The translations under genes were made by a program, and so were the position numbers. From Nitrospirota bacterium (GTDB lineage: Bacteria; Nitrospirota; Thermodesulfovibrionia; Thermodesulfovibrionales; UBA9159), in contig JAJYIF010000001.1 of assembly GCA_021790195.1 (NCBI GenBank), positions 1 to 64,000 on the forward strand: a stretch of DNA of 64,000 bases, written 5' to 3'. The notes beneath the pieces are model-generated. The model saw nothing but the letters and a program-made list of their open reading frames with translations, did not search any database and was not told where the DNA came from. This document shows, piece after piece, positions 1-60,924 of this stretch. Within the stretch, counting starts at the first letter, position 1. Every line of letters starts with the position of its first letter.

Positions 1-125
1 AGAGAAAAAGAAAGGCACAGGCTTGATTATGTTCTACAACCTATGCTAAAAAATCGAGGATAGGATGCTGCACCTGGGGGAATGACCCTGAAAACCAGGT
101 GGGGGAATGCAGCTGAAAAATGACA
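1..125. mobile_element. putative insertion-sequence end (IS21-like), continuing off the window
   Basis: Two copies of a 20-bp word (75-94 and 100-119, 17 of 20 identical) recur with a 25-bp period next to a TGACA at 121-125. On the minus strand this reads TGTCA followed by two CAG-CATTCCCCCA-like blocks. From memory this resembles the multiple terminal repeats of IS21-family elements, which start with TG. The element would run leftward out of the window. No transposase is visible, so the family call is tentative. Confidence 0.4.
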
Positions 126-1294
126 AGCTGGGCAATTATTCCGTTCAATTTCGCAATTACTGTTTTGTCCTTGTTCCAGTAAGCATTTTCCTTTTGCAGC
201 TTGGCTAACAATTTCTTATCATTCTTGTCACCGCCCGACAGCCTGAATTCGATCTCAAATGAAAGCCATTCAGCAAGCCTCAATGAAGCTAATGAGTTAC
301 CGAGCACTTTTGTCTGATACAGCTCGAACAATCCCTTTGATGCTGGCTTCGAGGACTTAAACGGATAAAAGCCGCTGTATTCGGTTTTGCGTTTGATGCA
401 CTCCAATAGCTGATGAGAGATTTGCTTGGGTTCTCTATGAAGAATGGTCTCAATCTCTCGCCGATAAGTCCTTGCGGCATCCCAAATAAAGAGTAATGCC
501 TCATTCGGTATTTCTATTACATCACAATCCGGCTCTTGTCCGGAATTGCTGAACAGCCAGACATTAAGCGAGGCATGTGGTGGCAATTCAAGAATCCGCC
601 TGTTTCTTTGCAGTTCAGTAAAGATTTTTAGAAGCATCGTAAGTGACTCCTTAGTGCCCTTTCCTTGACCAACTGCAGAAAGCTTTTCATCGCTTCCCAA
701 AAGATTCAATTTATCCTGCGTTTCTTTAAAAACCTCAGCAACTATTAGCTGCGTTAGCTCCGGATAGATTGATTGGAAGCAGGCAATCTTTCCGCCGATT
801 ATAATGGCTCCTAGAGGTAGGAACTGAACAGACAAGAGACATAGTGAACAGATTCGTGCTGTTCTGCTCGCGGCCGGGAGAGCTTGCGCATCACTGCCGA
901 TGCTGCCGGCCAATGGGAACCAATCCCTGGCAACTTCTTTCTTATATTTAGCAAGCACTTTTGTTGCGGGCCTCTCACCACATGCCTCACATCTATATTC
1001 GCCGCCTGTATCAGCAATTGCGGACTTTGCGAGGCTCTGGATCATCTCGCAATATTGCTTGAAGCCTTTATCGTTCTTTTTTAGACTTGGATTCGTCAGG
1101 GGGGAGTTAACCCCGACCACCATAGTAAATGTCTTTAACTGCCTATTGGCCTTTGCCAACCAAACGCCATCAGAGACAAGAGCATCGAGGTCAGCTTTGG
1201 TCAAATGCTCAACGTTTTCTTTGCCAGCTTTAGCCACAATTACCGCTAAACCCCCATCCACCCACGGATTCCCTGTCCAACTAAATAATGGCAT
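41..1294 (-). CDS. cst1: CRISPR-associated protein Cst1 (Cas8b1-type, CXXC-CXXC family), 3' end probably replaced
   Basis: Large subunit (Cas8-like) of a type I-B/TNEAP Cascade complex, which binds crRNA and recognises target DNA. The N-terminus PLFSWTGNPWVDGGLAV and two CXXC pairs (about C102/C105 and C149/C152) fit the Cst1 CXXC_CXXC family. The start at 1294 is chosen because AGGAGA lies 8 nt upstream and the family begins near this motif; an in-frame start at 1312 is possible. It follows cas6 by 24 nt in the same direction. The last 28 or so codons lie inside IS-like terminal repeats (41-125), so the native C-terminus appears lost and the downstream cas7/cas5/cas3 genes are not visible. 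Confidence 0.8.
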   Translation of the reverse strand: MPLFSWTGNPWVDGGLAVIVAKAGKENVEHLTKADLDALVSDGVWLAKANRQLKTFTMVVGVNSPLTNPSLKKNDKGFKQYCEMIQSLAKSAIADTGGEYRCEACGERPATKVLAKYKKEVARDWFPLAGSIGSDAQALPAASRTARICSLCLLSVQFLPLGAIIIGGKIACFQSIYPELTQLIVAEVFKETQDKLNLLGSDEKLSAVGQGKGTKESLTMLLKIFTELQRNRRILELPPHASLNVWLFSNSGQEPDCDVIEIPNEALLFIWDAARTYRREIETILHREPKQISHQLLECIKRKTEYSGFYPFKSSKPASKGLFELYQTKVLGNSLASLRLAEWLSFEIEFRLSGGDKNDKKLLAKLQKENAYWNKDKTVIAKLNGIIAQLVIFQLHSPTWFSGSFPQVQHPILDFLA

Positions 1295-1318
1295 CAATTT
1301 GTCTCCTTGCAAAAGTCA

Positions 1319-2146
1319 TTAAACAATTTCCTTTACCATCCCAAACCCCATACTTCCCTTCTCCCCGAAACCCGCTTCGTATCCCGTCTCGATCAGTTCC
1401 GGATTGCCGACGACCTCAAAAGGTGCCATGAAGCCGATGATGTTTGTGCCTTTAAAATTGATATTCTTTGTGATCTTCCCGTTCCTTCTCTTCATATAGT
1501 CCTCATCAATATTGACTCCGAGGTCTGCGTTCTCTATATCTTTTCCGTGAACGATGTTGTATTTTTTTATGAGATTATTCCCGATAGCTTCTGAAAACCC
1601 TTCTTCTCCCGGGCGGATGTAATGACAGTGAGTTTCAGACGCCTTGCTTACCGTAAGCGGTGAGAGGCAAGTGAAACGCATGCTTTGTCTGAATTCCGGT
1701 TTTGGCAGCGTTTCAACGCTCTGTATGATGAATGCTGCTTCGCCACCTTCCGGGCCTATCCTGACTGTCTGTCCTTCTGCAAAAACGCCGGTGACCAGAT
1801 GCTGAAGAAATGCATCGACAGGGGAAGCTATCTGCCAGGTGACAGGCCCTTTGTCGAAGCTGATTCGGTCCCCCGTGACTTTGACCTTTTCACTTTGCAG
1901 CATGGAATAAGTAAAAAGCTTGAAGCCCTTCTTGCTCTCCCCAAGCCTGTAACCTTCATCATGAAGAAAGCGCGAATAGTCTTGTGACGAAGTGTTAATG
2001 AATCTGTAGATCAGACTCGTTAGAAAATAGTTGTAGCTTATAGGCAGACTGACTGTCTTAGTAGTGGGCGTTAATGTAAGCTTGATCCTCGTTTCCCCTC
2101 CAGAGCAATAGGGCTCAAACCTGTATAATGATAGACTATGCCACAA
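1319..2146 (-). CDS. cas6: CRISPR RNA endoribonuclease Cas6
   Basis: Cleaves pre-crRNA within the repeats. The RAMP-fold signature is clear: SRFLHDEGY near the N-terminal ferredoxin fold and the C-terminal glycine-rich loop GFGEKGSMGFGMVK. The family usually begins MRIKLTL. Here RIKLTL is preceded by ACG (2090-2092) rather than ATG, with GGAGGGG at 2095-2101 just upstream. The only nearby conventional-type start in frame is TTG at 2146, which adds 18 residues. The true start is unresolved: ACG initiation, the TTG, or a mutated start. First gene of the minus-strand cas operon. From ACG the product would be about 257 aa, a normal Cas6 size. Confidence 0.85.
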   Translation of the reverse strand: MWHSLSLYRFEPYCSGGETRIKLTLTPTTKTVSLPISYNYFLTSLIYRFINTSSQDYSRFLHDEGYRLGESKKGFKLFTYSMLQSEKVKVTGDRISFDKGPVTWQIASPVDAFLQHLVTGVFAEGQTVRIGPEGGEAAFIIQSVETLPKPEFRQSMRFTCLSPLTVSKASETHCHYIRPGEEGFSEAIGNNLIKKYNIVHGKDIENADLGVNIDEDYMKRRNGKITKNINFKGTNIIGFMAPFEVVGNPELIETGYEAGFGEKGSMGFGMVKEIV

Positions 2147-58290: not shown

Positions 58291-60924
58291 TTACTTAATA
58301 CTCGATATCGAGCGGTTTTGCCGCAGACTTTTCCCTTTTGCCTTTTCCAGGGTGATTCTATATTCATTGAAAGCCTTAAGTGCGCTCTGGAACCTCTGGT
58401 CATCCGGATACATCCTCACTGCGGTCTCCAACTGGATCGCCGCCTTCTCTATCAACCCTTTTCTCGTATAAGCAACTCCAAGATTGAAATGGACGAGGGC
58501 ATTGTTCGGCTGCGCCTTTATGACCGCCTCGTATTGTTCAATAGCCTTGTCCATCAACCCCTTCTGATAAAAGGCATCGCCCAGAAGCTGACGGTCTTCA
58601 GCTGACCCCGGATTCAGCCGCACGGCGATCTGATACTGTTCGATCGCCTTGTCCGCGGACCCTTTCTTCATGTATGCAACACCGAGCCTATGGCGGGTAT
58701 TTGCATCATCCGGTTCTGATTTCAATGTAATCTCGTATTCCTCAATCGCCCTGTCTGTCTGACCTCTCTTGAAGAAGACATCCCCCAGTTCCCTATGAAC
58801 CTCGGCAGATTCAGGATCTAATTTCAACGCGATCTGATACTGCTCGATCGCTTCATCAGTCCTTTCCTTTAAAAAGAAAGCATTGCCCAAATTGGCATGT
58901 GCCTGCGCATAACCGGGCTTCATTCTTATGGCGACCTGAAAATGCTCTATCGCTTTGTCCGTCGACCCCAGAATCATGTAGGCGGACCCCAGATTATTTT
59001 GGACGTCGACATACCCGGGATCTAACTTCAGAGCGGCCCGGAACTGCTCAACAGCCGCTTTTGTCGATCCTTTCTTGAGCAGGGCGGTTCCCAGGTTATA
59101 CCTTGCCTTTGCAAAGTCAGGGTCCAACTCCACCGCCTTCTGAAAATGCTCAAGCGCTTTATCCATCAAACCCATCCGCCCATAAGCAATCCCCATGTTC
59201 ACATGGGCCTCGGCAAAGTCGGGGTTTAATCTTAACGCAATCTGATATTGTTCGATCGCTTTATCAGTCAAGCCCTTCTTCTGAAAGGCGGTCCCGAGAT
59301 TATAATAGATATCAGCATTGGTCCTGTCCAGCAGAGCGTCCCCTTCATGTGAGGATGCCAGCCTCGTCACGGAGTCCAATGCGCTCTGATATTCCCGAAT
59401 CGCCTGATCCGTCCGGCCCTTGTCGAACAGGGCGATGCCCAGGTTGAGGTGCGCTCCGGGCTCATCGGGTTTTCTCTTCAAAACAATTTGATATTGTTCA
59501 ATGGCCCTGTCAGTCAGGCCGCTCCTCTCATAGGCGACTCCGAGGTTGATGCGGGCCCTGATATTGCCAGGAACTTTGTCAACGACATCCTTCCAGAGCG
59601 CACTTCCGTCTCTCCATACCCCATTCCTTATTAGAGACAGGCCGAATAAAAGGAGCGCAACAAACAGAATGATCTTCTCCCTCTTTATCCGAATCTCGGA
59701 TCTGTTTCCATATATGAGAAGAGAAGAAAGAGCGAGAAATAGTCCATAACTGGGCAGATAATTCCTATGCTCAAAATACGGGTCCAGTCCGAGCGCTATG
59801 AAACTCTCAAGGGAAATCGTCACCAGATACCACAATATCCCAAAGGAGATAAATGGAAACCTCTTAATATTCTTCAGAGAAAAAACGACAAGCGACAAAA
59901 GAAAGAGCAGAGAAACAAATGTAGTGAGAGGATGGAACAGGTCCCTTGATACGGGATAGGCATTGGAATAGTCAAATACCATGAATGAAGGAACCGGGAC
60001 AAGAATGAGGAAAATATATCTTGAGACCACTCTCAGTTCCGTCAATAGATACTCGACGGGTGTCCAATTGATGTCCATCCCCATCCAGGCGTATCTTTCC
60101 ATAGGTTGATTCCGATTTGAAAGTATAGTGGCAATCTTCTCCATTAATCCGACCATATTCATCTTAAATGCTACGATTGACACCATAGATATCAGTATTA
60201 CAGAGAGTGTTATAAATCTCTTTCTGAACTCGGACCACCGAAACGCGGAAAGGAAGAAAAGGTCAAAGACCGGAAGCATAACAAGAACCATCACAGCGTT
60301 TTCCTTTGAGAATACAGCGAGAACAAAAGAGAGGGCTGAAAGACAATAAAGTAACGCCGACCTCTTCCCGCCGCCGGCAAACCCTTTCACATAAAGGATG
60401 AGTCCTATAAAGGAAAACATTCCCGCCATTATGGCCATTCTCTGCGTAATGTAGTTCACCGTCGAAGTCTGAATAGGGTGAAGCAAGAAAAAAGTCGCAA
60501 CGAACAGGGCGATATATAAAGGCTTCTTCCCCTCTCCAAGCTTCCTGCTTATGTCTCGCACAGACGGAAGGGTCAATGTGATATAGGTCAGATAAGAAGC
60601 TGAGAGGGCCGAAAAGATATGAAGGATTATGTTCGTAATTCTGAATGCGACAAGGTTCATACCAAAGAAGTGATAGTCCAAAGCAAAAGAAAACACTGCG
60701 ATTGAACGGAAACCTAAAGACAGATTATGCATGATACCTTTCAATCTAAGCGGTCTTATATATATGAGATCGTCAAAGAACAGGGGGGCGTGGAGGGACC
60801 TGAAATATGCAAGAAAAGTCAAAAGCACCAGTAAAAAGATAAATGCCGGTCCAAAATAATTAAGCGCTTTCTTGCGAGGCGGCTGGTTGAATGGTTTCAT
60901 GTTGTCCGAAACTCTCTTATCCAC
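58291..60924 (-). CDS. large polytopic membrane protein with 11 TPR repeats
   Basis: 877 aa. N-terminal half: about a dozen membrane helices with LFFDDLIYIRPL, the DD-type periplasmic loop of GT-C glycosyltransferases, and EHRNYLPSYGLFLALSSLL. From about residue 455: eleven 34-residue TPRs (LGVAYERSGLTDRAIEQYQI, LGTAFQKKGLTDKAIEQYQI and so on), reflected as a ~102-bp periodic pattern between about 58400 and 59560. Homologous in design to the protein at 32549-34495. Sits directly after the exosortase pair. GTG start; ATG 60900 is possible. Confidence 0.75.
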   Translation of the reverse strand: MDKRVSDNMKPFNQPPRKKALNYFGPAFIFLLVLLTFLAYFRSLHAPLFFDDLIYIRPLRLKGIMHNLSLGFRSIAVFSFALDYHFFGMNLVAFRITNIILHIFSALSASYLTYITLTLPSVRDISRKLGEGKKPLYIALFVATFFLLHPIQTSTVNYITQRMAIMAGMFSFIGLILYVKGFAGGGKRSALLYCLSALSFVLAVFSKENAVMVLVMLPVFDLFFLSAFRWSEFRKRFITLSVILISMVSIVAFKMNMVGLMEKIATILSNRNQPMERYAWMGMDINWTPVEYLLTELRVVSRYIFLILVPVPSFMVFDYSNAYPVSRDLFHPLTTFVSLLFLLSLVVFSLKNIKRFPFISFGILWYLVTISLESFIALGLDPYFEHRNYLPSYGLFLALSSLLIYGNRSEIRIKREKIILFVALLLFGLSLIRNGVWRDGSALWKDVVDKVPGNIRARINLGVAYERSGLTDRAIEQYQIVLKRKPDEPGAHLNLGIALFDKGRTDQAIREYQSALDSVTRLASSHEGDALLDRTNADIYYNLGTAFQKKGLTDKAIEQYQIALRLNPDFAEAHVNMGIAYGRMGLMDKALEHFQKAVELDPDFAKARYNLGTALLKKGSTKAAVEQFRAALKLDPGYVDVQNNLGSAYMILGSTDKAIEHFQVAIRMKPGYAQAHANLGNAFFLKERTDEAIEQYQIALKLDPESAEVHRELGDVFFKRGQTDRAIEEYEITLKSEPDDANTRHRLGVAYMKKGSADKAIEQYQIAVRLNPGSAEDRQLLGDAFYQKGLMDKAIEQYEAVIKAQPNNALVHFNLGVAYTRKGLIEKAAIQLETAVRMYPDDQRFQSALKAFNEYRITLEKAKGKSLRQNRSISSIK

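What the first reader, a model, noticed from the sequence alone, without database searches (positions are those of the whole stretch)
41..125. cst1 C-terminus is encoded by insertion-sequence-like terminal repeats
The last 28 or so codons fall on two 20-bp words repeated every 25 bp and starting at a TG end, the layout of IS21-type termini. This implies that a mobile element has entered the cas operon and cut the Cas8 subunit, leaving later cas genes separated or lost.
Basis: partly seen in the sequence, partly recalled or inferred. Interest (0 to 1): 0.55.

Follow-up and report, generated by a model that had tools for sequence, protein, structure and literature searches.

The report
Mobile element splits CRISPR cas8b gene
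A common kind of jumping DNA (an IS21-type insertion sequence) has landed inside a gene of a bacterial CRISPR immune system and cut off its end; this is a clear example of a known way in which bacteria lose such systems, not a new mechanism.

Summary
Window position 1 is the end of an assembly contig. Bases 1-125 are the istB-side end of a multicopy IS21-family element. The same end sits at nine contig ends of this genome, and the opposite end at seven. Seven of the nine pair with an opposite end through 4-7 bp target-site duplications. A complete relative in another genome of the class is 2,562 bp, encodes IstA and IstB, and has a 6-bp duplication. The element joins cas8b at 125|126. The reading frame keeps 395 native codons and runs 28 more into the element. 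A full-length homologue (559 aa) follows the gene up to the junction and continues about 154 residues beyond it, followed by cas7-cas5-cas3-cas4-cas1-CRISPR. The rest of the I-B operon was not found in the assembly, nor was this copy's other end. A matching I-B-like array on contig C17 is cut by a second multicopy element, while a type I-E system keeps all its searched genes. IS insertion into cas genes is already documented (PMC10359306). Well supported but ordinary.

The parts
1..125 (+). istB-proximal end of a multicopy IS21-family element; the element continues to the left beyond the contig end
   Evidence: Identical or nearly identical at 8 other contig ends of the genome; aligns with the end downstream of istB in a complete element of genome G174
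3..26 (+). probable last codons and stop of istB (read by eye as R-K-R-K-A-Q-A-stop)
   Evidence: Alignment with the istB 3' end in L086; inference, the rest of the gene is not assembled
75..94 (+). inner copy of the 20-bp terminal direct repeat
100..119 (+). outer copy of the 20-bp terminal direct repeat, 25 bp from the first
121..125 (+). element tip TGACA, ending in CA; junction 125|126
   Evidence: All nine copies of this end share the sequence to here and diverge after it
126..132 (+). place where this copy's target-site duplication should start (AGCTGGG...); its length is unknown because the partner end is not in the assembly
   Evidence: The other copies have 4-7 bp duplications; no partner for this flank among 7 opposite ends
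128..1312 (-). native part of cas8b, 395 codons; 5' end intact, 3' end removed
   Evidence: PADLOC Cas8b 2.4e-37 over residues 11-386; TIGR01908 over cut-off; homologue L045:7163-8842
41..127 (-). 28-codon fusion tail and stop read from element DNA (codon 396 is shared)
1319..2146 (-). cas6, intact, upstream of cas8b
   Evidence: TIGR01877 128.4 bits, over cut-off; PADLOC Cas6b 6.4e-66

Best explanation
An IS21-family element, present in about nine copies in this genome, transposed into the 3' half of cas8b of a type I-B CRISPR-Cas operon (order in a relative: cas6-cas8b-cas7-cas5-cas3-cas4-cas1-array). It lies with its istB end toward the start of cas8b, so its genes read toward the junction and converge on the cas operon. 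The insertion replaces the last ~154 residues of Cas8b by 28 meaningless residues read from the terminal repeats, and puts the element between the cas operon's start and cas7-cas5-cas3 and later genes. Shown: the junction, the multicopy element end, target duplications for other copies, the truncation, the complete relative of the element. Inferred: simple transposition at this site, loss of the C-terminal helical domain (and of a Cas11b small subunit if made from an internal start), polarity on later genes, and loss of I-B interference. The contig stops here because the assembler could not pass a multicopy repeat.
For: Nine copies of the 125-bp end and seven of the opposite end, all at contig ends. 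7 of 9 pair through perfect 4-7 bp duplications; random flanks gave a mean of 0.35 pairs, maximum 4, none with 7 in 20,000. Complete relative L086:2863-5424 with IstA (221 bits, cut-off 160) and IstB (245 bits, cut-off 200) and duplication CAAGAG. Cas8b homologue in G035, 61% over 422 columns, alignable to the junction and 154 residues longer, in a full I-B operon with an array. IS21 ends made of direct repeats and ending in CA are described in PMC10122671 (passages read).
Against: This copy's opposite end, its target duplication and its istA/istB genes are not in the assembly, so a simple insertion is not proved; an insertion followed by deletion, or a chimeric contig end, would look the same. 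Identity of the contig ends over ~125 bp is partly by construction, since assemblers cut contigs where k-mers are shared. Loss of I-B function is not tested.
Confidence: 0.92

Rival explanations
1. The element inserted and later rearranged: recombination between copies or a deletion at its edge removed the rest of cas8b and the cas7-to-cas1 block, so the remaining I-B genes are gone rather than separated.
For: PF01905 Cas7 not found, only the I-E Cas1, only one Cas3 over cut-off (the I-E one), and no DNA match to the relative's cas7-to-array stretch except the array repeats. The flank AGCTGGGC has no partner among the seven opposite ends.
Against: The assembly is 96.3% complete with 54 contigs and the missing stretch would lie between two multicopy elements, so a small unbinned contig explains the absence equally well. 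Contig C30's copy also lacks a partner, so partners do get lost.
Confidence: 0.35
2. Only part of the sampled population carries the insertion; the intact operon exists in sister cells and the contig represents one variant.
For: Nothing direct; inference from the fact that assemblies often mix strains.
Against: No intact cas8b 3' end was found in the assembly. No reads are available.
Confidence: 0.12
3. The 125 bp are an assembly artefact (false join of a repeat to the cas8b contig).
For: The contig ends exactly in the repeat.
Against: Nine copies switch to unique sequence at the same base, seven with matching target duplications; the same tip-to-flank layout with duplication exists in another genome.
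Confidence: 0.03

Closest known systems
Insertion sequences in cas genes (Nat Commun 2023, PMC10359306; start of abstract in the listing, passages and section 6 read)
   Same: An insertion sequence disrupts a cas gene; that paper reports 163 natural insertions into cas genes by 20 IS families in 57 genera.
   Different: Here the carrier is an incomplete assembly, so the copy is seen from one side only. 'IS21' and 'cas8' do not occur in the main text of that paper; its supplements were not read.
IS21 family (IstA/IstB; IS5376 in PMC10122671, passages read)
   Same: Ends made of multiple direct repeats, terminal CA, IstA plus AAA+ helper IstB in the complete relative, short target duplications.
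   Different: The opposite (istA-side) end carries four repeat words rather than two (by eye); duplications vary from 4 to 7 bp among copies.
Type I-B CRISPR-Cas with Cas8b and Cas11b (Nat Commun 2024, PMC11096372, passages read)
   Same: cas6 and cas8b adjacent; the relative has the gene set; the C-terminal portion of Cas8b is said there to be identical to the separately translated Cas11b.
   Different: Here that C-terminal portion is cut off; in relative G035 an ATG at residue 443 (117 residues from the end) lies within the lost part, without a clear ribosome-binding site by eye.

Membership tests
IS21 family | Element ends with TG...CA | tested here: met
   Both ends finish ...TGACA or ...TCACA
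IS21 family | Multiple direct repeats in each terminal region | tested here: met
   Two at this end; four similar words at the opposite end (by eye)
IS21 family | Short target-site duplication (4-8 bp is recalled; 5 bp is mentioned in PMC10122671) | tested here: met
   4, 4, 6, 6, 6, 7, 7 bp in 7 of 9 copies; 6 bp in the complete relative. Not testable for the window copy itself
IS21 family | istA transposase and istB ATPase inside the element | tested here: inconclusive
   Met in the complete relative L086, whose ends match; the body of the window's own element is not assembled. The only full-length IstB hit in the genome, at C22, is not flanked by this end
Type I-B CRISPR-Cas | Cas8b large subunit with upstream Cas6 | tested here: met
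   Cas8b truncated
Type I-B CRISPR-Cas | Cas7, Cas5, Cas3 in the same operon | tested here: inconclusive
   Contig ends before them. PF01905 Cas7 and an I-B Cas3 not found elsewhere in the assembly, nor a DNA match to them; present in relative G035

The most novel reading that the evidence does not exclude
Two different multicopy elements struck the same I-B system independently, one in cas8b and one in a spacer of its array on C17, in a genome that keeps a type I-E system; this would mean active or tolerated dismantling of the I-B system, with the remaining cas genes trapped between two mobile elements.
Probability: 0.45. Interest if true: 0.3.

Novelty: new member of a known kind. Interest (0 to 1): 0.17.

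Why it matters
It is a clean natural case of probable CRISPR loss by an insertion sequence, found from one contig end, and it shows that contig ends in draft genomes can carry the evidence. It adds a case in which a bacterium with two type I systems has one damaged. It does not change how IS21 or type I-B systems are understood.

Tried and rejected
Looked for close relatives of Cas8b in genome contigs: 31 stretches matched a peptide pattern, none was confirmed. In the family search 1 of 7 genomes matched, the own one. In the class, 4 of 230 genomes matched (own included); G035 was used, G055 (30% identity) was fetched but not analysed and G192 (a 24-residue match) was not followed.

Asked whether the IS21 element at C22 is the same element: it has IstA and IstB, but the window end did not match there, so it is another element.

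Searched plasmids and phages and viral contigs for the end: no match. In genome contigs a degenerate pattern of the end gave 11 stretches: 5 Rokubacteria, 4 Geobacteraceae/Geobacter, 1 Zixiibacteriota, 1 Deltaproteobacteria. I inspected the ORFs beside 5 of these 11; of the three put to hmmscan (L048, L052, L055), all 3 gave partial IS21 transposase matches, below the family cut-off as expected for fragments; L047 and L057 showed no IS21 gene by eye and were not scanned. The other 6 of 11 were looked at only for their terminal repeats. Of the 8 stretches fetched, L087, L088, L090 proved to end at the element's edge, and L089 showed no transposase ORF by eye.

The idea that the terminal repeats are a chance repeat was dropped. 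Joining the flanks of the paired copies to show intact target genes was not done.

Full report
Observation. The ORF at 41-1312 on the minus strand is 423 codons. Bases 75-94 and 100-119 are two 20-bp words, 17 of 20 identical, 25 bp apart; 0 of 500 dinucleotide shuffles of bases 1-125 did as well. The minus strand starts TGTCA at position 125. Codon 396 covers 127-125, so 28 codons use this DNA.

What the 125 bp are. The window is G000:C33 from base 1, so its left edge is a contig end of a 54-contig, 96.3% complete assembly. The 125 bp recur at eight other contig ends (C30, C28, C48, C41, C34, C31, C6, C7), and a related sequence, the opposite end, lies at seven contig ends (C50, C45, C43, C42, the right end of C30, C4, C3): 16 of 16 places are contig ends (with the contig lengths; sequences; exact search for the opposite end: 7 of 7). 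The nine copies share sequence up to ...TGACA and diverge after it. Comparing the flanks of the nine ends with the reverse complements of the seven opposite flanks gives seven one-to-one pairs: AATAGG, GGAC, CTATATT, CCTGAT, ATTGGA, ATTT, CCGCAAC. Random flanks gave 0.35 pairs on average, at most 4, in 20,000 trials. The two 4-bp pairs are individually weak. The window copy (flank AGCTGGGC) and the left end of C30 have no partner. Identity among these ends is partly imposed by assembly, since contigs are cut at shared k-mers, so it must not be read as proof of recent spread.

Family. In the class, 10 of 230 genomes (own included) hold a match to the 125 bp (mostly only the three best candidates per genome were scored there, so this is a lower bound). 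One of them, G174, has the whole element: L086:2863-5424, 2,562 bp, with the opposite-type end upstream of istA, the window-type end just after istB, and the duplication CAAGAG on both sides. Its products score 221 bits for NF033546 (cut-off 160) and 245 bits for NF038214 (cut-off 200). Ends built of several direct repeats and closing in CA are described for IS21 (PMC10122671, passages). The window-type end is therefore the istB side. The element's genes point toward cas8b and converge with it.

What was hit. The ORF is Cas8b: PADLOC 2.4e-37, TIGR01908 25.1 bits over a cut-off of 19.4, PF09706. Cas6 lies upstream. G035, in the same order, has a 559-aa homologue, 61% identical over 422 columns, within cas6-cas8b-cas7-cas5-cas3-cas4-cas1 and a 24-repeat array (cas2 was not looked for). 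By the alignment and the positions, window residue 396 corresponds to G035 residue 405, so about 154 residues are missing. In a solved I-B complex the C-terminal portion of Cas8b is identical to the small subunit Cas11b (PMC11096372, passages). In G035 an ATG at residue 443 would give 117 residues, inside the lost part. Loss of this helical domain, and of later genes' connection to the operon start, should abolish I-B interference; this is inference.

The missing half. In the own genome the Cas8b profile finds only this ORF. PF01905 Cas7 is not found, the only Cas1 is at C33:151 kb, and the only Cas3 over cut-off is at C33:144 kb. Those belong to a type I-E system whose Cas3, Cas8e, Cas11e, Cas7e, Cas5e, Cas6e and Cas1 were recognised, with an array of 61-bp spacing. 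A DNA search with the relative's cas8b-3'-to-array stretch gave one match only: C17:36462-36555, which is array. C17 ends in 17 repeats of 30 nt, 25 of 30 identical to the G035 I-B repeat. The degenerate repeat lies at the inner end, so the leader should face the contig end. About 20 nt after the last repeat the sequence changes into another repeat, found at 99-100% identity in six further contigs and, over its first 35 bases, at one interior place (boundaries, where two of the six further copies were missed by the exact string used). Its family is not known. The layout is consistent with C17 - rest of the I-B genes - element - C33, but the adjacency is inferred only.

Place in knowledge. Insertion sequences in cas genes are documented: 163 cases, 20 families, 57 genera (PMC10359306, section 6; its main text has no occurrence of 'IS21' or 'cas8'; supplements not read). 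I make no claim that an IS21 insertion in cas8b is unreported: two literature searches on the topic are not enough. Verdict: real, well explained, a new member of a known kind, low interest.

Noticed in passing
L085:9120-10342 (G000:C17, contig end): A CRISPR array of 17 repeats with an I-B-like 30-nt repeat is cut within a spacer by the end (AGAGGTGGACCCCAATGG...) of a second multicopy element found at other contig ends.
   Followed up: partly
L085:9259-9392: Two neighbouring repeat-spacer units of this array are 100% identical over 67 bp, a duplicated spacer.
   Followed up: no
L044:4924-14691 (G000:C33:142923-152690): Type I-E cas operon with an array; an extra ORF between cas6e and cas1 matches the PADLOC candidate family PDC-S13 at 3.1e-127.
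   Followed up: no
L065:1905-4238 (G000:C22): A different IS21-family element with full-length IstA and IstB in the same genome.
   Followed up: partly
L100 near 1500 (G000:C34:74637-74671): The first 35 bases of the second multicopy element's end occur inside a contig without a transposase ORF nearby, perhaps a remnant or a small non-autonomous copy.
   Followed up: no
window 58532-59525: Degenerate 34-nt repeats at multiples of about 102 bp, probably a protein with 34-residue repeats.
   Followed up: no
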